From: Pagrus major
Taxonomy: Eukaryota; Chordata; Actinopteri; Spariformes; Sparidae
Length of the DNA: 64,000 nt
Reading direction: 5' to 3'
Assembly (NCBI RefSeq): GCF_040436345.1
Contig: NC_133230.1
Coordinates: 13,030,197-13,094,196, forward strand
The notes under the pieces are model-generated. The model searched no databases, was not told the DNA's origin, and was given only the letters and a program-made list of their open reading frames with translations. This document shows positions 29,842-63,460 of the stretch, in pieces (position 1 is the first letter of the stretch; each line of letters opens with the position of its first letter). A program made the position numbers and the translations under genes.

Positions 29842-32800
29842 TCAGTCGTCGTTGTTGCAGTCTGTACACAGGATCTGGTCGCGGTCGGGGAAGAAGCCGG
29901 AGCCCACCAGCGACACGGAGCAGCGCGAACACTTGAAGCACGGCTGGTGCCACTGCCGCTCCTCAAAAGAGACGTACTTCCCATCTCCAAACCCTGAGAG
30001 ACACAAACACAACACATGAGCAACTAATGAAGGAATGTTTTACTAGAGGCGGAAAATAAAAGTTAATAACGGCCTCAAAAACACTGCGGAAATGACACAA
30101 ATGAATTCAAGATAACATCAGCAGCTGGCAGAAACTAAAAGAAAACACTGCCAGCTCCGTCGACCTGCTGGTATTCATGTTCATAGCTGTGGTGAAAAAA
30201 AGCATTTAATTCAAAATCTCATTTAACTGTGAAGTTTCTTTAAAAAACATCAGATAAGGAAGTTTTTATCTGTTTTCAGCATCTTTTAAATGAAGTGTTT
30301 GTTTTTTCAACCCTGAGCAAACTCTTTCAGGATGGTTGTCATTTGTGTTGCCAGGTTGGAGCTACACACTCGTCAGAACGGCAATAATTCATGTTTTCAT
30401 AATGACAATGTATTAAATTAAATGTCTTTGTGTGAAAGGGATCGCTCGCTGATGAACCAACAGAGAATTATGACCTGAATCGGCAGTTTAACAGCAAATT
30501 TAAGTGAATTTTTTAGCCGTCCAGCTTTTTGCTCTCTCTTCCACAGACCAAGCAGTTCTGACCATTTTAGTGTATTTCTGTCCTTTTTCCTCAGTTGGTG
30601 TTTTCTTTTCTTTTGAAAATGGTGGTCTGGTGGTTCTGTTTCTGGAGGCTTTGTTTGTTAATTTTGTTTATGTGTCTTTTCTTAGTTTAGAAAGGGAAGT
30701 TCTGGTTGTGGCTGGCCCCAGACTTCCCTTGTCTTTTTTGTTTTTTTCCATTTTGGCCTCCAGACTCTCATAGTTTTGGTTAATTGTGGTATTGTTTGGA
30801 GGCAACTGTGTGTTTTGTTCCGGCTGTAACACTGCTGGAAGAAAGTGGAGCATTTAACAGCTAAAGAGCCGGAGCTCAGGAGGTGGTGGAGACCAAAAAC
30901 AGAGCTAAAAGAGTGTAAATATTGGATTTTCATTTATCAGATGATGATTAAAAAATGCTTGTTCACTTCAAAGCAGTTAACTGGCGAAACCCAACTATAC
31001 GTGGCTTTTATTGTGAAGGGATCTCTTTTGACAATAGGAGCCAACTACACAACACAGGATATATGCAAACCCCACAGGAAGGATCAGGGCCAAGATTTAA
31101 AAACCGGAGTCAACTGACTGCCGACACCTCGTCTGTTGGAGATAATTGTTTTGGCATTTAACTGATAGTAGATAGACAAGAACGACAGGAATCAACGGGA
31201 GACGATAAACAACAGAGAATCCCAAACAAGACTGAACCAGGGCTTTACTGTTCACCAACAGACATCAGCTCTGGAGAATTCACTCGGCGGCTGTGTTCAC
31301 GTCACTGACCTGTGATGGCCGTGTTGCAGCCGGCACACTTTTTGGCGTACAGGCTGCTGAAACACTTGACGCAGTACGGACTGTCTCCCTGCGAGGTGAA
31401 GGGTTGACCAGCCAGAGGAGCTTTGCAGCCCGTGCAGACAAAACACTCCTTGTGCCACACCTCGTCCTTGTAGGTCACCCCTCCTTTAGTCAGAGCCTGC
31501 AGGACACAAATACAAACACATATAAGCGGTTACATTTTGTGTAATGCCTGGTTTTTACTGCTGACGGCATGGCTTTTTCTATTGACTTTCAGATTTTCTA
31601 CCATATTTATCCTATAATCTGACTATAATCTCCTGGATGTTAAAATAACATGTTAAATGGTGTTAACATGACATGTATGTTGATGAGAAAATCTCTCTCT
31701 CTCTCTCTATGCTATCTACTGAGTGCCATTTTATTTTTTCAAATATGTTTTCATTGATTTATGTTTATTTTTTATATTTTCTACTGGGCTCCACTGTAAC
31801 AAATGATGTCCTGTCCTTGCACATTCTTCGATTTGCTTTTCTTTCTCTATTTTTTACTGCTTTTATCGTGGATGATGACGCTTAACTTGACACTTCATCA
31901 ACTAAATGATCCACTGGAGTAGTCGTCCGCGGATTCAAAATATCGAGAGTAACTGTTGGTTGCAGACCCTCGTGCTGTATGTGAGGCCTGGTTCACCTTT
32001 TTGCAGTGGCTGCACTGAGGAGCGACCCTGCCCTCGTAGCACGGCACACAGTAGTAGTTGTTTTTGTCTGGGATGAAGGCCTCGGCACCGATCGGCTTCT
32101 CACAGCCGTGACAAGTAAAACAGTCCTCGTGCCACGCGGCACCGTCGTACTCCAACATCTTCGATCCTGCCAGAGAAGAAGAAAGTGTTTGTGATTGTTT
32201 GTTTGTTGATGTCTTCTCTGACATTTAAAGAACCGTGTGTCACTTCCTTTGATCTCTGCCCTACTGTGCCGTAACTACAAGCCGCAAAGAAATCTGATAG
32301 CGTTCACACGCACACCGAGAAGACCAAAAAGTGATGATTCAGTCCGACAGCTCAACCTGTTCTTACACAGCCCTCCTGGAGTATACAATTACGTCAGCTT
32401 ATCTTGCATCTAAACAATCTGACAAGCCGCAACAAAGCTGACATACACATGGCTGCACAGCATCCTAAAAAAAACAACCTTTTCTCAGAAACACACGCTT
32501 CACTTCAGAGGTTTATAAAATCTAGGAGCCGGTTATGCTCGTGAATCGGACATCAGATCCTTTAATCACTGTTCTTGTTTTACGACTTTTGGGGCCTGAA
32601 ACGCAGCCCGGAGGCATGACGGTGTTTTGAACTTGAACTCTAGGACGGAGGAGCTGCGTTTAAAGGCTGAACAGAAACTGAAGAGAAACGACTGCTCGGT
32701 TCAGAAAAGAACTGGTGAGTTATAGTATCCCACACTACCCACAGGCCCGGGTAATTTTCAGTCATCCGACACCGCTGCTGCTCTCGTGATGTCACAGTGC

Positions 32801-34312
32801 CCCAGAGCTTGAAAGCCCTGCTGGGAGATATTTTCAGCAGAGCAAGGAAACAATCATTCTGTCACATCTAAGCTGTCACACCCCGGTTAACAAAACCTCA
32901 TTAGCGTCTTTATCCCTGCAAAGGACAGGGTGTGAACTTTTTCAGTGATTGCTCAAGAATTTGTCCTCGAGGAGCTCCGTGAACTCGGTGTTGGAGGGTA
33001 AAAAAAAAAAAAAGTTGTCGCTACCTGGCATGACTATCTTGTCGCAGGCGGCGCACTTGGAGGAGAACTCGTTGCAGTAGCAGTCGCTGCACACCAGAGC
33101 GTCGCCCTGGCTGGTGAAGGGCTCGTCCGCCAGAGAGCGGTCGCAGCGGAAACAGCGAAAACAGTGCGAGTGGTAATGTCTGTTCTCGTAGAAGAGCTCC
33201 TGGAGGAAGAGGAGAGGGTCAGAGTGAGCGTTGTGAAAGCAGTCACGCTTAAAAAATGGTGCTGTGATAACAACTGACAAGGTATTTCATAGAAACATAA
33301 CCAAAAACCATGCGACGCTGTGCTTGTGTGTGTCTCAAAGCTCAGCTAAAATACTCGACTTGTTCCTTTGAGATGTGTGATATTAAGAAAAATATCAAAT
33401 AATGCCACCTTTATCCTGTAACAGTGAATAATACAGGAACTCCCCGAACAATAAGTTAATAAAAACACTTGATGTTATCGTTCCTTGCAGGGAGTTTCTC
33501 TATTTTCAGCCCCCCATCTGCTCGGAGGTCAGAGGTCACGGTCGACCACAGGATTCAGTTTCCTGCACAGGGACACTTAAGAGTTTTGGATGTTTGGCGA
33601 CACGGAGGGTCTAAACTCAAAGTTTCCTACTTGCCGCGACACCCTGCTGTCCTCCAAACAAAGTTCTTGTTCTGTCCTTTCCTTCATCGTTATTTTCTTA
33701 ATAAATCAGAATAACCCACTTTGCGATTTTTCTTTTTCGAACAGCTGCTTGTGTTCCAGTTCATCTGCAGTTCAGGCGAGCTCTGTGATAAATGGCTCCA
33801 TTGAAACCGTGGGGTGAAAAACTTACATTTGAGGCGTGGGGTTTCACGTTAAAAGAAACAAGTAAACCGAGGGGCTGAGAAGGATGAAGGATGGATGTTG
33901 TTATGTCTTGTGCGGAGGAGGGACGGCCAAAGCAAGCAGGAGCGTAATTTACAGCCGGTCCCTCACAGGGAGGCCATAATTCACTGCGTCTGTGGGTGTT
34001 TCCTTCACTACAGTGTTTTTAATTTTTAACTAACTACAGCTTTTAGGAAACTTAGAGGGGATTACGGATAATTTGATGTTCCTTAAGCGGAGTTATGTTT
34101 TCCAGGAATTCCAGCTGGTTTGTGAAAGGAGCTCCTCCCGTACGAGTCGAGCTCACCTTGGCATTATGACCGATGATTTCTTTACATTCCTGGCAGGTGT
34201 TGGCGTACAGGCGGTCGTAGCAGGGGATGCAGTGAGGCTTTTCCTCCACCTGGATGTATTTGCGTCCGCTCAGGGACTCCTTGCAGTTTTTGCAGTCGAA
34301 CTGGTCACTCAT
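29842..34312 (-). CDS. fhl3: Four and a half LIM domains protein 3
   Basis: Five coding exons on the minus strand: 34312-34157, 33199-33025, 32166-31997, 31496-31310 and 29993-29842. They total 840 bases, or 279 residues plus stop; human FHL3 has 280. The N-terminal half-LIM (MSDQFDCKNCKESL, zinc-binding Cys pairs) is followed by four complete LIM domains whose Cys/His ligands are visible, for example HCFRCFRCDRSLADEPFT, WHEDCFTCHGCEKPIG, WHKECFVCTGCKAPLAG and WHQPCFKCSRCSVSLVG. The protein ends in DCNNDD. SLADEPFT in LIM1 and KIVMPGS match FHL3 better than FHL1 or FHL2 as remembered. FHL proteins are cofactor scaffolds in nucleus and focal adhesions; FHL3 is enriched in muscle. Human FHL3 shares 1p34.3 with MEAF6 and RRAGC, which supports the call. 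An acceptor lies at 34335, 23 bases before the ATG, so the leader starts in an upstream exon. Which teleost duplicate (a or b) this is was not decided. Confidence 0.93.
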
Positions 34313-37194
34313 GATGTCTTCCTCTGGCCGACCTCCTGCAAAAACAGAGGATTCACAGGCACCGTTTAGCGTTCGCTATCAGCAAGAAGACAGCGCAGGA
34401 AGGAGGAGGAGAAGGAGGGAGATTAGCAAGACAGGGAGAGAAAGCAGGATGACGGGAGGCTGACAAGTTGTAGATATACAGCTGGGAAATAAATACCAAC
34501 AGAGAGACAAAAATGGGAGGACAAAAAAACATTTTAGGACACTTTACAGGATACGTTACAACTAAAAAACACACTGAAAACACAGAGTACCAGACCTCGA
34601 ATCAAACATTAAGAGCTGTAAAAAGAGTTCAGAGGAACTTCTTGAACGCAGATCCTTCCAGGCACGGATGTGTTTGGGAGTTTCAAATACAGTCCAGGTT
34701 CACTGCTTATTCCTGGAGAGTGGGAACAGGAGGTTTGTCGTCAGAGGAACGGAGGTCGTGGGAGGGAGTGTGGCAGCGAAGAGGAGCTGGTTATGGAGGG
34801 CTTTGTGAGTTAAGACAAACAACCTGATTCCTGGAAATTTATGTAAAATCATCCTAAAACGCTTGTCCCAAGTCTTGCCCAAAGCAAATTCAAAGCAGGC
34901 ATTGGTTTGGGCGCTTTTCAAAGCTTTCTAAGCTGATTTTTTTCCCACAAGCTGTCAGAAGCTCTTGAAGGAGGAGTTTGAACACACTGAATTATTTATT
35001 TATTTATTTTGCTTAAATATTTTCATGCAAAAATGCTGTAACAGATGACCTGCAACTGCCCCTATTAGCTGGAGAACACAGTGGGTCCACATCATATAGT
35101 CGTCTATGGTCCAAGTTCAAATTGAATAACAGTATCATTCAAAATGAACTCCTAACACTTTTAGGAAATATCCAGGCACCTGGCAAAAAAAAATGCCATT
35201 TTGTGACCTCAATGACCACGTTTAAGAGTTACAGGAGCAAAAACTCATTATAGTTCCTTATTTCCTTGTTTACAATAACTTTGTGCATTTAAAATAGTAA
35301 AAAAAGAAAAAGTGATTAGGTGGAAAAACAGCTTATTCAAAGTACAAAACTACATAAACTTGAATAATTTCTAAAGTTTATGGCTTTAAAACTGTAATAA
35401 ACTATATATTACAGGATTTGAAATCTCATTGGCTACATGATGCATCAATCATCCGGAGGCTGGCGTGTAAGTGAATCAGGAGCGAGGAGAAAGAAGTGCG
35501 TCACTGGTCTATATGATCACTCATTGGCTGTTGTGGGCTCTAGGGCGGGCTTAGGAGCTCCTCTCTGCGAATCTGAGTACACTTTGTGTGCGTTGATACA
35601 GTTAGCAGGTGTTATTTGGTGGAAATAGACTTGAGACAAAGTCGAGTACCATCTAGTTCGATTATAGTCCAGAAAATGCAGACATCTCTACAGCTCGACA
35701 ACTCACACCAAAACAATCCAGATGGATAAATCGCACTACAGGTAAAAGAGGAAACGTGGATTTTTGATCTGAGAGGAGAAGGAGGTTGTTGGTGAAACTG
35801 CCCCACAGAATAATTTACAATCCTTCTTAGAATAACTTTCAACATGTAAGAAACGGAGACTGTTGACTTAAAGACATCGGGCTGCAGTTGACGGTTAAAT
35901 ATTGTTCAAAATGTTTCTCATCCAGAAAGTTTTCCCTGGCAGCAGAGAAAGGGCTGAGTGAACACTTTGACTCAAGAGTTATAGTCCCGTTGATGTAACT
36001 GCTTCTCCTGTTTCATCATCACTCACTAATAAGTGAAAGCTCGTCCCTCCCCTCCTCCTCATTCTTGTACCAAACCCCCCGCGGCGGTTTGGCATTGAGA
36101 AAGAGCAACGAAACAATATTAATTGTTGGGGAGCTGAAGTGAACACTGTTCTCTGTTTCAAAGGCTCTCAGGGGCTTTTCATCTGCGTTTGGCTCGAGTT
36201 TCTTCCTTTTGTGCACAGCTTTCTCTTAAAGGCATAACTTTCCCTTGTTATCAGTGACCAACATCAAGATGTTTTATTGCTGCAACGTTTTTCTTTTTTT
36301 TTTTTTTCCTACGACAGCTGTGAACGTTTCACAGGGATGATTATATCTGGCTCAGAATATTACATAATCCTCTCCCAAAGTCACCTTTAGCCCAAACATC
36401 AAGCAGTTTACAGGTTTTACTTGTATTTGATCAAATAAAACTGGCCTTTTGTTTCAGAGAACAACAGAAACAACATCTCCCAGGACACTTTTTAAATCAG
36501 CAGGATTTCCTCTGAAAGCTGGAGCGTATACTTTCTCATAAAAAATCTTTTAATCTTTCAAATCTCAGTTGCCTCGTTACGGAGCTTTTTATGTCTTGGC
36601 TGGCTGCACGACACTAAACACAATCCCACTGGGGAAATTGGGTTTGCTCTCTCTAAATTAGTTCCATATTAATTCAAAGCGTATCTTTGTCATCTGTTAT
36701 CATATCGACTGTGAAGATGAATATTTATGTCTTAGCTCATCAGTGACCCAACCAGTCTCGGGATAGATTTGGTTTTGGTTGTTTTAGCTGAAGATGTAGC
36801 GTGTAATCGAAAGCTACACGTCAGCAAGCAAGACATGAGAATGAGAAAACAACAGGGTGCTAAATAACAAGACAAGACATGGTTTTGTCATAAGATGTAC
36901 ATTTATAAAGTTTGTTTATATGACAACAGCAGTTATATCTCAGTGTTTATTTACTGAAATATAATCATTGTTTATTGGTGCTTCAGTCATTGAACGAGTC
37001 AGACAGGCCTGTTTTTGACTGATGGTTAAGCTGATGACAGACATCGCCTCTTTCAAATTTATGTTATGAAGTCTGATCTGACGATTCAAAATGACAAATA
37101 TCACCGCTGTAACATGACTATCGCAGCGTACCAGAAACAGATATAGCGGACCTTTTTCGGACGTTCTCAGCTTGGTTAGGTTTAGGAAAACATA

Positions 37195-49519: not shown

Positions 49520-50143
49520 TACGGAAGCCCTACAGGGCCATGCATTCATACGCTTTATTTCCTCCGTTTTCCCGTGATAACGAGTTAATTTCATTTGTTT
49601 TCTCGAGATCTCGAGTTATTATCTCGAAATAACAACTGCAGGAAACATCATTCAGTGTAGCAATGTCAGAGGAGCAGGAGCATATCGATCACCGCGTCAA
49701 ATATCTTTTCAATCAAGGCCTGACACAGGCTGAAATAGCATTATGCCTTGCTATTACAGATAATATACACATTAGTGTGCGTAATCTAAAAAGACGGTTA
49801 GCAAGGCTTCAGCTGTATCGGCGGTGCAATCTAAGTGAGCCTGATGTCGTCGTTAACTACATAGCTGACCAGCTACGAGGTCCCGGGCGTCTCCATAATC
49901 TCAGGCCTATCATATCACAGTCATTATCTTGAGATCTCAAATTAATTGTATTGTTATCTCGGGAAAACAAAGTTTCGTTATCTCGAGATCTCGAATTAAT
50001 TATCCCGTTATCTCGGGAAAACGGCAGTTGTTATTTCGAGATAATAACTCGAGATCTCGAGAAAACAAATGAAATTAACTTGTTATCACGGGAAAACGGA
50101 GGAAATAAAATGTGTGAATGCGTGGCCCTTTAGGGCTTCCGTA
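49520..50143. mobile_element. DNA transposon derivative with ~119-bp terminal inverted repeats
   Basis: Near-perfect inverted repeats bound the element: left 49520-49638, right 50024-50143, about six mismatches over the arm. The outer end reads TACGGAAGCCCTA on both sides. TA is found at both borders, so a TA target duplication is likely. Each arm contains the palindrome CTCGAGATCTCGAG. The inside holds an 89-codon frame (49663-49932) and, from 49922, two more motif units. At 624 bp with a short frame, this looks like an internally deleted relative of a larger element. The clade was not determined. Confidence 0.85.
49663..49932 (+). pseudogene. Truncated transposase-like N-terminal (HTH) fragment, 89 codons
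   Basis: This frame lies wholly inside the inverted-repeat element. The residue pattern FNQGLTQAEIALCLAI followed by VRNLKRRLARLQL looks like a helix-turn-helix of the type that opens a family of uncharacterised fish integrase/DDE-core proteins, judged from memory. The next recognisable part is VVVNYIADQLRGPGRLH. The frame then leaves the family pattern (NLRPIISQSLS) and ends in a TGA within a subterminal TTATCTTGAGATCTC motif. That suggests an internal deletion joined it to the right end and removed the catalytic core. It could not catalyse transposition itself; whether it is expressed is unknown. Confidence 0.6.
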
Positions 50144-54300: not shown

Positions 54301-55894
54301 TTGTGTTTCTATTTTGTGGTCATCAGACAGGCCGTCGACTTTGTGGATGAACACCTCAAAGTTGATGTCTGGATTCACTTTGTAGGCTCTGGACACAGTG
54401 AGGTGTAACCGCCCGAGAGCCTCGACGTAGTCATCCTAAAAACATGACAAATTCAGCACAGGGAAAGGTCGATGTGTTGATTGATCTCACACAGAAGACC
54501 TTTAAAGCCTGAAATGCGAGCTTCAGTTTAAACTACCTGAGCGTCAATGACAAAGATCAAAGCGCCGGTTCCCTTGAAGATCATCTCGCTGTCAAACGTG
54601 GGGTCGAAGAAGTCCACCTGGCCGGGGAAGTCCCAGATCTGGAAGTTGACGAAGGAGCTGCTGGAGATGTCGTCCTTGTAGATTTTGTTGGTGCTCTCGA
54701 GGAACAGCGTCTCGTTGGGAGACATCTTGTGAAATACAACCTGGACAGACAGAGAAGCACGAGGATTATTGTCTCGGTTCAATGTCTTCCTGATTCACAG
54801 GCTTCATTCTCCGAGTCTACATTTTGTAATTCTACTTCTGATACCTCTCAGATCGACTTCATGTGTCCATCCTGAAGACAGATCTCTCCTCTATTGTTTT
54901 CAAGGAGGTTATAGTTTCGCTCATGTCTGTTTGTTGGTTTGTCAGCAGGATTACGCAAAAACTACTGAACAAACTTCTGTGAAACTCTGAGGGAGGATGG
55001 GTCTAGGCCCAGAATAGACGCCATTAACTTTTGGTGCGGATTTGTGAATTTCTCAGGGAATATAATAATAATTCATGGGTCTTCATGGAATAAAACAACA
55101 CATCAGCCATATTTAGGTGACTGGTATCTATGAGTGAGTACAAAAAGGGACTGCTGGGCCTCGGCGCTCTACTGAGAGTCAATCGAGTTTTATATTGTCT
55201 TATTTTTATTTTCTAAATATTCTTTTTTAGTTTAAGCACAGAATAAACACATGTCATTTTAAGAAAGGTCTTTTGGCTCAGTTACCTGTTTATTAAGTGC
55301 AGCGAGCCACAAATAATGCGGTCTAATACAACAGCCCTGCACTCGGTCCCATCTCTTCGTGAAGATTGTTTTTGCTGAATGTGCTTCAGAAAGGCTCTGA
55401 CTCAACTTAACTGAAATTTTAGGGGGTTTTTTTTGGAGTTGCTGTTCAACTTTATTATGACATACTAGTTTAGGGAAGTGTTTCTATTATTGTGACCAGC
55501 CCATTTTTATCAATGAAGCTAGTTTAAATAGTAGAAACACCTCCCAGTGTGAGGCAACAACATACAAGAGCACAAGGAATCACAGCTTTCTATATTTTCA
55601 GGTTGAACCAACATCATTAAAGGCTTAAAAGGAGCCATTTACTGCAGGACTGTTGTCATGTAACTACACAGGTGTGTTTCAGGTTAGCTTGGCAGCCCCT
55701 TTCAGGTGACTTACCTTCTGTATTGACGACTTTCCACTCCTCCTCAGTCCCATCAGCAGGATCCTCGGTTTGTCAGCTGATGCGGAGCTCTCCTCCATGT
55801 CAGGCTCCTCCACCCCGTAACCAAAACTTTTAGGAAACGACCCCACAACATCGTAGCTCCCCGCTAACGCAGGCTCCTCGTACTGAATAGACAT
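51372..55894 (-). CDS. rragc: Ras-related GTP-binding protein C (RagC GTPase)
   Basis: Seven coding exons on the minus strand: 55894-55715, 54740-54537, 54435-54236, 53550-53436, 53338-53196, 53103-52955 and 51520-51372. They total 1,140 bases, or 379 residues plus stop. The G1 P-loop GLRRSGKSS is at residues 49-57, G3 WDFPGQ at about 96-101 and G4 HKVD at about 159-162. A roadblock-type C-terminal domain follows. [16 protein letters not shown] and [15 protein letters not shown] favour RagC over RagD. RagC pairs with RagA or RagB on the lysosome, binds Ragulator and recruits mTORC1 when amino acids are present. The protein is about 20 residues shorter than human RagC (399). The gap falls in the low-complexity N-terminus, and the last 30 residues also differ from human (Ser-rich, ending in NALA). 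The gene is divergent from ppt1. Confidence 0.96.
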
Positions 55895-56356
55895 CCTGCA
55901 CGCTACAACCTGGCCCTGCTCCCTCCTTGAAGGCTTAAAATCCGCGTCTGAACTTTGATTTTAAGCGGCTGAATAATCCGCACAGGAATGTTGTTGTCGA
56001 TTCTCTCCACAACGAGCTAGCATGGCAAGCTAATTAGTTAGCTAGCAAGCCCGAGCGCGGCGTTTATACGTTAAAAAGCCATGTCGGGCGGTGACGTATC
56101 CGCGTGGGATTTAAAATGAAAAACGTCAAGATGCTAAACAATCATAATATCGGCAGAGAGATGGTTAAATCGGGCTAGAAAACAGAGGCGAGGTTACTGA
56201 AAGAAAAAAAAAAAAGGGTAGTCACAAGTTGGACACTTCCGCCCCCCCCGGCTGCTAACCACGCCCCTTCACGCTGATTGGCTGTTCGCTTCTAAACATA
56301 ATCACGTGACGCGCAGTCCAACGAGACAGAACCCGGAAGAGCCGCGCACAGAGACA
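55895..56356. promoter_or_regulatory. Shared rragc/ppt1 bidirectional promoter
   Basis: About 460 bases lie between the rragc start codon and the donor (ACA|GTGAGT at 56356) of a ppt1 leader exon. The region is GC-rich. It has a CRE-like TGACGTA at 56092-56098, a GC-rich box (CCACGCCCC) at about 56259 and an inverted CCAAT box (ATTGG) near 56277. It also has ATCACGTGAC at 56301-56310 and an ETS motif CCGGAAG at 56333-56339. ATCACGTGAC matches the CLEAR consensus GTCACGTGAC at nine of ten positions. TFEB/TFE3 bind CLEAR sites in lysosomal genes. No TATA box is apparent. Confidence 0.75.
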
Positions 56357-57624
56357 GTGAGTAATGTTTGGGGGAAATTTAGGACAATTTCAAACATTAT
56401 TTAGGCTTTTCTCATTCAAAATATATTAATTTTGAGAATGTGTTCTTGATTTTTAACCTTCTAAATGGCGTAAAAATGCTCCTGCGCATTTCAAAACGTG
56501 TTTAGTCACTGATTTATTACATGTTGTGCGTGTTGAGTAGTTAGTTAGCTTGTTCAGGCTAATTTCCATAGGATTCATTGAAAGCATCTTTATCTCGTGT
56601 TTGTTCAAAGTCTGCGCTTCTCATCTGTTTTGTTGTTGCTGTGCTGTTATTTTTAAGACAGTGTCCATGAGGTTATAATGAAGTGAAAGCTGCCGAGAGC
56701 AGGAAATGCACACAGCTTAATTTCTGTTTCTCACATGACTGTAAACAGATGTCTGTTGATGATTTAACTATTTTTATTACATTTTACACAAGTGTTGTTA
56801 AAAGTCCTCTAAAGTCACACTAAAAATAAGGATGTAATGTTAGAATGAAATATTCATGAAAAGTCTGAAAGTATCTGATATTAAATGTGCTTCAGTATCA
56901 AATAAAAATAAATATAAAATATGAAAATAATTCAGCATTTTTCTGTTTATTGGAATCAGTGTTTTTAAAAAAAAATGTTTATTTATCTGATTGCTGATCA
57001 AATAAATCAATTTAAAATGTGCTCCCATGGCTCTGATGCATCATGCAATCATAAAAGTAACTATTAATTAAAGTCTGTAAATAAATATAGTCATTACAAA
57101 GTCAAATATATGGTGCCAAAAAGTACCAGAGTGGACATTTAAAGTAGCAGAAAATGGAAACTACTCAAGTAAAGTGCCTTTAAAATTGTACAGTACTTGA
57201 ATAAATGTGTTAGTGACAATAAAAGTTTAAAGGTTTGCCAAAAGCTACCTGTATAACTACACAACAAACCTTATTTTATTAAAGTGAATGTTGAAGAAAA
57301 AGTCTACATCTGTAAACTAAAAACAACAGAAACAATAATAAAGAGAGAGGTTACACAGAATACTCGGGGCTGAGGTGAGAGATTAAAATACTCTGTTTGT
57401 TGTTTACGTTCAGTGATGTTTTTCTTATGCTACATTGAATTTTATTCCAAGTTTTGGTACATAGCAAAGCAAATATATCATAAGCTGCACTTGATGTTTA
57501 CATACATACGTTATGTTTCTGGTTACTAGCCCAAGTCTTGTAGTTATGTCCTGACGAGATGATATAAAGTGAAGATAGAAAAGGTGATTATATTATATAT
57601 TTTGTATTTATTTTAGGGTCCAGG

Positions 57625-63460
<5,836 letters not shown>

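What the first reader, a model, noticed from the sequence alone, without database searches (positions are those of the whole stretch)
56301..56310. CLEAR-like TFEB site in a promoter shared by two lysosomal genes
ATCACGTGAC matches the CLEAR consensus GTCACGTGAC at nine of ten positions. It sits in the 460-bp gap between rragc (lysosomal mTORC1 recruiter) and ppt1 (lysosomal hydrolase). One site could co-control the nutrient sensor and a lysosomal enzyme, which would be a compact feedback arrangement. TFEB binding to CLEAR sites and control of Rag GTPase genes by TFEB-family factors are established; use of this site is inference.
Basis: partly seen in the sequence, partly recalled or inferred. 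Interest (0 to 1): 0.7.

Follow-up and report, generated by a model that had tools for sequence, protein, structure and literature searches.

The report
Promoter E-box between rragc and ppt1
A short DNA motif of the kind bound by lysosome-controlling regulators really does sit in a CpG-rich promoter between two lysosome-related fish genes, but the evidence points more to an ordinary control element of one of them (ppt1) than to a shared feedback switch.

Summary
The motif is real: ATCACGTGAC at 56301-56310, the only TCACGTGA in the window, inside a CpG-rich block upstream of rragc (- strand) and ppt1 (+ strand). The "460-bp gap" is conditional: the start codons are 1,730 bp apart, and 460 bp holds only if ppt1 has an untranslated first exon ending at a moderate splice donor at 56357. 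By local simulation the octamer is unlikely in that interval (P about 0.003; 0.015 between start codons), but the motif was picked post hoc and the 10-mer is not enriched genome-wide (1,555 against 1,496 for the reversed control). ppt1 was found only here, while rragc has a second copy on C17, head-to-head with mycbp and without CACGTG in about 2.7 kb upstream. rragd lacks TCACGTGA in the 8.3 kb examined. The element thus does not track with Rag genes and lies closer to ppt1. Best reading: an E-box of the ppt1 promoter that MiT/TFE or USF-type factors could bind; an effect on rragc is possible but unsupported. Teleost conservation, start sites and binding could not be tested. Candidate new member of a known kind; modest interest.

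The parts
56301..56310 (.). E-box / CLEAR-like element ATCACGTGAC (near-palindrome)
55801..56550 (.). CpG-rich block (approximate limits): 200-bp bins over 55801-56400 hold 11-15 CpG, observed/expected 0.97-1.45, GC 0.46-0.52; CpG is 0 in the bins over 56701-57200
56277..56281 (-). CCAAT box (inverted), 20 bp from the E-box octamer; putative NF-Y site
   Evidence: motif match only
56333..56339 (+). ETS-like CCGGAAG, 22 bp beyond the 10-mer
   Evidence: motif match only
56259..56266 (+). KLF/SP-like CCACGCCC
   Evidence: motif match only
55715..55894 (-). rragc first coding exon (start codon ends at 55894; donor begins at 55714)
54537..54749 (-). rragc second coding exon (range of the protein match)
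56311..56356 (+). end of a putative untranslated ppt1 exon 1 (start unknown); donor at 56357
   Evidence: prediction with recalled splice weights, no transcript evidence
57617..57739 (+). ppt1 first coding exon (ATG at 57625; predicted acceptor just before 57617; donor at 57740)
58385..58510 (+). ppt1 second coding exon (range of the protein match)
60447..60584 (+). ppt1 third coding exon (range of the protein match; Palm_thioest)

Best explanation
The site is a promoter-proximal CACGTG E-box in a CpG-rich region that also holds an inverted CCAAT box and an ETS-like site, and it most likely works chiefly for ppt1. The proposed mechanism (inferred) is that bHLH-zipper dimers, MiT/TFE proteins when nuclear and perhaps USF otherwise, bind it just upstream of or within a short untranslated first exon of ppt1 and raise transcription of this lysosomal hydrolase. 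rragc, whose start codon is about 400 bp away on the other strand, shares the CpG-rich region and may be affected incidentally. Shown: motif, both genes, CpG-rich block, lack of CACGTG at the other rragc copy and of TCACGTGA at rragd. Inferred: ppt1 exon 1, factor identity, activity.
For: Only TCACGTGA in the window, in a CpG-rich block; local chance P 0.003-0.02. Of 20 other genomic copies of the 10-mer sampled from 100 listed, 1 lies in an equally CpG-rich 600 bp. The site is 47 bp before the only + strand donor of score 4 or more found between 56000 and 56550. ppt1 was found only here in this genome, while the rragc copy on C17, which has mycbp beside it, has no CACGTG in about 2.7 kb upstream. 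TCACGTGA is the consensus bound by MITF, TFEB and TFE3 in a melanoma study (PMC12828906, passages). CLEAR elements are in most cases within 200 bp of the start site of lysosomal genes (PMC6003119, passages).
Against: No transcript, start-site or binding data. The untranslated ppt1 exon rests on a moderate donor score from recalled weights; two donors further right score higher (9.9 at 57375, 8.3 at 57584). That PPT1 is a direct TFEB target was not stated in any passage I saw, and one review's list of example CLEAR genes does not name it (PMC6335712, passages); I recall it from the CLEAR-network literature. CLEAR promoters often carry several sites (recalled); here there is one. The 10-mer is not enriched in the genome. 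Loss on C17 instead of gain on C16 would explain the paralogue difference equally well. I could not test whether the promoter lies in a repeat.
Confidence: 0.4

Rival explanations
1. One reading: one CLEAR site drives both rragc and ppt1 in response to TFEB/TFE3, forming a nutrient-sensing feedback loop.
For: Divergent genes around one CpG-rich block. A summary by the authors of the mammalian work says that TFEB overexpression raises RagC transcript levels, less than RagD (PMC6551658, passages). The C17 rragc promoter has a degenerate GTCACCTGAC 304 bp upstream of its start codon (chance 0.013-0.015), which could be a decayed relative of an older site. A review says that Ppt1 deficiency lowers mTORC1 expression and its move to the lysosome (PMC8888908, passages), so the two genes do act on one pathway.
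Against: C17 rragc has no CACGTG in about 2.7 kb upstream, and the two promoters do not align better than shuffles (38 of 200 shuffles reach the score). rragd, the stronger mammalian target, lacks TCACGTGA in 8.3 kb. The site is 407 bp from the rragc start codon.
Confidence: 0.2
2. A generic E-box used by USF1/2, MAX or BHLHE40 for basal activity, with no lysosomal or nutrient logic.
For: A human promoter study describes a class of active promoters dominated by USF with CACGTG, where MAX and BHLHE40 also bind (PMC6238301, passages). USF1/2 are close partners of NF-Y in ENCODE data (PMC7793273, passages).
Against: The CCAAT spacing here is 20 bp, not the 10-12 bp reported for USF and MITF; the human promoter study finds that E-box and CCAAT motifs tend not to occur in the same promoter. 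TCACGTGA also fits MiT/TFE, so sequence cannot separate them.
Confidence: 0.25
3. Chance: an unused E-box in a CpG-rich promoter.
For: No genome-wide enrichment of the 10-mer or of the CCAAT plus E-box pair as a whole (322 against 365 for the reversed control). CACGTG alone has P about 0.07 in 460 bp of this composition. The motif was picked post hoc from 64 kb.
Against: The full octamer has local P 0.003-0.015 and lies close to the putative ppt1 exon end.
Confidence: 0.15

Closest known systems
CLEAR element (GTCACGTGAC) of the TFEB/MiT-TFE network
   Same: Nine of ten bases, including the whole TCACGTGA core; CpG-rich stretch upstream of a lysosomal hydrolase gene
   Different: Single site; start site unmapped; binding and conservation untested; ppt1 start codon 1.3 kb away
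MiT/TFE response element of the mammalian RRAGD promoter (PMC6551658, passages)
   Same: Same motif class; a Rag GTPase gene within reach
   Different: Here it lies beside rragc and not rragd; this fish's rragd lacks TCACGTGA in the 8.3 kb examined; no CACGTG at the second rragc copy
USF / NF-Y E-box plus CCAAT promoters
   Same: CACGTG plus CCAAT in a CpG-rich promoter, with the E-box on the 5' side of the CCAAT
   Different: 20-bp spacing instead of 10-12 bp
rragc-mycbp head-to-head pair (C17 copy; also the human neighbour, recalled)
   Same: rragc divergent from a neighbour, with CpG-dense sequence at its first exon and upstream
   Different: The partner is ppt1 in this window; no CACGTG in the C17 pair

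Membership tests
CLEAR element | 10-base palindrome GTCACGTGAC | tested here: met
   9 of 10 bases, TCACGTGA core 8 of 8
CLEAR element | In most cases within 200 bp of the transcription start | tested here: inconclusive
   47 bp from a putative ppt1 donor; 407 bp from the rragc start codon; no start-site data
CLEAR element | Promoter of a lysosomal or autophagy gene | tested here: met
   ppt1 identified; rragc identified
CLEAR element | Bound by and responsive to TFEB/TFE3 | not testable with these tools
   needs ChIP, CUT&RUN or reporter data
CLEAR element | Conserved in orthologous promoters | not testable with these tools
   the genome tool states that this genome has no relatives here
Rag-gene TFEB target (RRAGC/D type) | CLEAR-type site shared by related Rag C/D genes of the genome | tested here: not met
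   C17 rragc without CACGTG, rragd without TCACGTGA, in the stretches examined
Bidirectional CpG promoter | Divergent genes with start sites under 1 kb apart over a CpG-rich block | tested here: inconclusive
   divergent genes and CpG-rich block met; start codons 1,730 bp apart; start-site distance depends on a predicted exon
NF-Y plus USF/MITF composite | CCAAT and E-box 10-12 bp apart | tested here: not met
   20 bp between ATTGG and TCACGTGA (published spacing)

The most novel reading that the evidence does not exclude
After the teleost genome duplication one rragc copy lost mycbp as its divergent neighbour and came to share a CpG-rich promoter with ppt1; through the ppt1 E-box that copy became a TFEB-responsive Rag gene, while the other copy (and rragd) did not, so that the feedback from TFEB to mTORC1 runs through a different Rag gene in this fish lineage than in mammals.
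Probability: 0.1. Interest if true: 0.55.

Novelty: new member of a known kind. Interest (0 to 1): 0.3.

Why it matters
If the site works in both directions it would link the supply of a lysosomal enzyme to a nutrient sensor through one short switch, and the two rragc copies (one beside ppt1 with the E-box, one beside mycbp without it) give a built-in comparison for testing it in one animal. If it serves only ppt1 it is a fish instance of the known CLEAR network.

Tried and rejected
I did not scan viral contigs or genome contigs (viral and prokaryote collections).

Conserved promoter between the two rragc copies: rejected; local alignment score 97.5 against a shuffled mean of 89.4, reached by 38 of 200 shuffles. 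The GTCACCTGAC on C17 is kept only as a lead.

Canonical NF-Y plus USF/MITF composite: rejected on spacing (20 bp).

Genome-wide motif enrichment: none for the 10-mer (1,555 against 1,496) nor for ATTGG-N10-30-TCACGTGA (322 against 365).

Positive controls at other lysosomal promoters: attempted and not obtained. PF14845 (hexosaminidase N-terminal domain) gave no match in this genome (2 of 2 candidates scored); PF01992, PF12971 and PF02089 searches did not complete. A count of mycbp copies, a search for copies of the promoter DNA and a pattern of E-box plus ETS site did not complete. A housekeeping-promoter control set was planned and not run. So there is no lysosomal or housekeeping promoter base rate here.

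Printed account of an rragc-ppt1 shared promoter: paper searches. The titles and starts of abstracts that were listed do not describe one; one search listed 20 of 34 papers. I opened 11 papers in all, each as passages only; the papers (PPT1 among lysosomal genes in two disease data sets) gave nothing that I used.

Full report
What is there. ATCACGTGAC lies at 56301-56310. It is the only TCACGTGA in the 64-kb window (0.69 expected in the whole window by dinucleotide-preserving shuffles) and the only match to GTCACGTGAC with at most one mismatch (1.01 expected). Of 9 CACGTG in the window (8.7 expected), this is the only one with T before and A after it.

The genes. The - strand gene to the left is rragc: its joined first two coding exons match PDB chains of Ras-related GTP-binding protein C at E 6.9e-60, and protein D less well (4.5e-49, a shorter chain). 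The + strand gene to the right is ppt1: PDB palmitoyl-protein thioesterase 1, E 7.3e-42, and Pfam Palm_thioest on a third coding exon. The rragc start codon ends at 55894 and the ppt1 ATG is at 57625, so the gap between start codons is 1,730 bp. A scan of 56000-57610 with recalled splice weights finds that donor (score 6.8) as the only + strand donor of score 4 or more before 56550; two donors further right score higher (9.9 at 57375, 8.3 at 57584). For comparison the rragc exon-1 donor scores 12.5 and the ppt1 coding-exon donor 8.7. The acceptor before 57617 scores 4.2, beside others of 4.7 (56662) and 4.1 (57414) (all). The shared promoter is therefore plausible, not shown.

The setting. CpG observed/expected is 0.97-1.45 in the 200-bp bins over 55801-56400 and 0 in the bins over 56701-57200. 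The block holds an inverted CCAAT (56277-56281), a KLF/SP-like CCACGCCC (56259), two CRE-like TGACGT (56092 +, 56123 -) and an ETS-like CCGGAAG (56333). These are motif matches only. The CCAAT to E-box spacing is 20 bp; an analysis of ENCODE data reports 10-12 bp for NF-Y with USF1/2 and MITF (PMC7793273, passages).

Chance. First-order Markov simulations (4,000 each) trained on the local sequence give P = 0.003 for TCACGTGA and 0.008 for CLEAR with at most one mismatch in the 460-bp interval, 0.015 and 0.020 between the start codons, and 0.069 for CACGTG alone in the 460 bp. These are uncorrected for post-hoc choice. Genome-wide (786 Mb, 25 contigs) the exact 10-mer occurs 1,555 times against 1,496 for the reversed control. 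I fetched 20 of the 100 listed places (all on contig C1; I left out the first 17, which include tandem copies, and a pair near 3.17 Mb, and took the next 20 in order): 1 of 20 has at least as many CpG in 600 bp as the window site (32), and 2 of 20 have observed/expected of 1 or more. So most of the sampled copies are not in CpG-dense sequence.

Paralogues as a natural comparison. A protein search of the genome gives 5 matches (5 of 5 candidates scored): the two window exons, two exons on C17 and one on C5. On C17 there is a second rragc copy (exon matches 96% and 74% identical). About 1.1 kb from its start codon, on the other strand, begins an exon reading MTHYR, followed by exons that join to a protein matching PDB c-Myc-binding protein at E 3.9e-4; a flagellar-associated protein chain scores better, at 5.7e-12. 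I read this as mycbp, the neighbour of RRAGC in human (recalled). A study of vertebrate akirin neighbourhoods, of which rragc is a member in several vertebrate classes, reports double conserved synteny in teleosts (PMC2660306, passages), which fits C16 and C17 being products of the teleost duplication (inference). A ppt1 protein search gives 3 matches, all on C16 in this window (3 of 3 candidates scored). In L034 and L038 (about 2.7 kb upstream of the C17 rragc start codon) there is no CACGTG. The nearest is GTCACCTGAC, 304 bp upstream of the start codon, one base off CLEAR but in the core; the chance of a match with at most one mismatch there is 0.013-0.015. The two rragc promoters do not align above shuffles (38 of 200 reach the score), so I do not claim that this is the same site decayed. 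The C5 match (87% identical) I read as rragd from its residues (recalled): 8,267 bp around it, including a likely first exon (L039:3700, inferred), hold no TCACGTGA and one CACGTG, downstream of the matched exon.

Reading. The element does not follow the Rag genes. It is present where ppt1 is and absent at the rragc copy beside mycbp. This is one comparison in one genome, and loss on C17 is an equal possibility; but together with the distances (47 bp to the putative ppt1 donor, 407 bp to the rragc start codon) it favours ppt1 as the main client. The factor cannot be told from sequence. TCACGTGA is the shared consensus of MITF, TFEB and TFE3 (PMC12828906, passages), while USF, MAX and BHLHE40 occupy CACGTG promoters in human cells (PMC6238301, passages).

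What is known. CLEAR elements (GTCACGTGAC, in most cases within 200 bp of the start site) are described in PMC6003119 (passages). TFEB control of RagD, with lesser rises in RagC and FLCN transcripts, is summarised by its authors in PMC6551658 (passages). Zebrafish have two orthologues, rragca and rragcb, and a paper whose title says that TFEB overexpression ameliorates RagC S75Y cardiomyopathy used an rragca knock-in (PMC8197163, title and start of abstract, passages, 12 of 16 places shown); the passages that I saw do not discuss the rragc promoter. A review states that Ppt1 deficiency lowers mTORC1 expression and lysosomal translocation (PMC8888908, passages). I saw no statement in print that TFEB binds PPT1; one review's examples of CLEAR genes do not name it (PMC6335712, passages). 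I recall it from the CLEAR-network literature.

Limits. No other fish sequence was reached, there are no transcript or binding data here, and positive-control promoters could not be gathered (see Tried and rejected). The verdict therefore rests on motif, context, local chance and one paralogue comparison.

Noticed in passing
L034 and L038 (G000:C17:23685687-23690100): The second rragc copy is head-to-head with mycbp, whereas the window copy is head-to-head with ppt1: divergent partners differ between the two copies.
   Followed up: partly
genome-wide pattern ATTGG-N10-30-TCACGTGA (first 100 of 322 places): Among the 100 listed places, 30 have a spacing of 10 or 11 bp, against about 9.5 expected if even, resembling the published NF-Y with USF/MITF spacing of 10-12 bp; some of these look like copies of a repeat (ATTGGCTGAGTAGCATCACGTGA and variants).
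   Followed up: partly
G000:C3:12022264-12022301: A symmetrical double module, ATTGG to E-box in both directions around a single TCACGTGA.
   Followed up: no
window 56731-56739: An M-box-like TCACATGAC lies 430 bp beyond the E-box, inside the putative ppt1 intron 1.
   Followed up: no
window 58623 and 58657: Two CACGTG within 34 bp, downstream of the second ppt1 coding exon match (58385-58510).
   Followed up: no
window 31898-34375 (-): LIM-domain exons with an FHL2/3 N-terminal LIM match, probably an fhl3-type gene further along the - strand side of rragc.
   Followed up: partly
window 49633-49932 (+): A 99-aa open frame (containing MSEEQEHIDHRVKYLFNQGLTQAEIALCLAI) that looks like a helix-turn-helix start of a transposon-derived gene (recalled impression); no Pfam match at E 0.01.
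   Followed up: partly
G000:C1:335528-335768: The 10-mer recurs at steps of 21 bp or multiples, so some of the 1,555 genome copies sit in tandem repeats.
   Followed up: no
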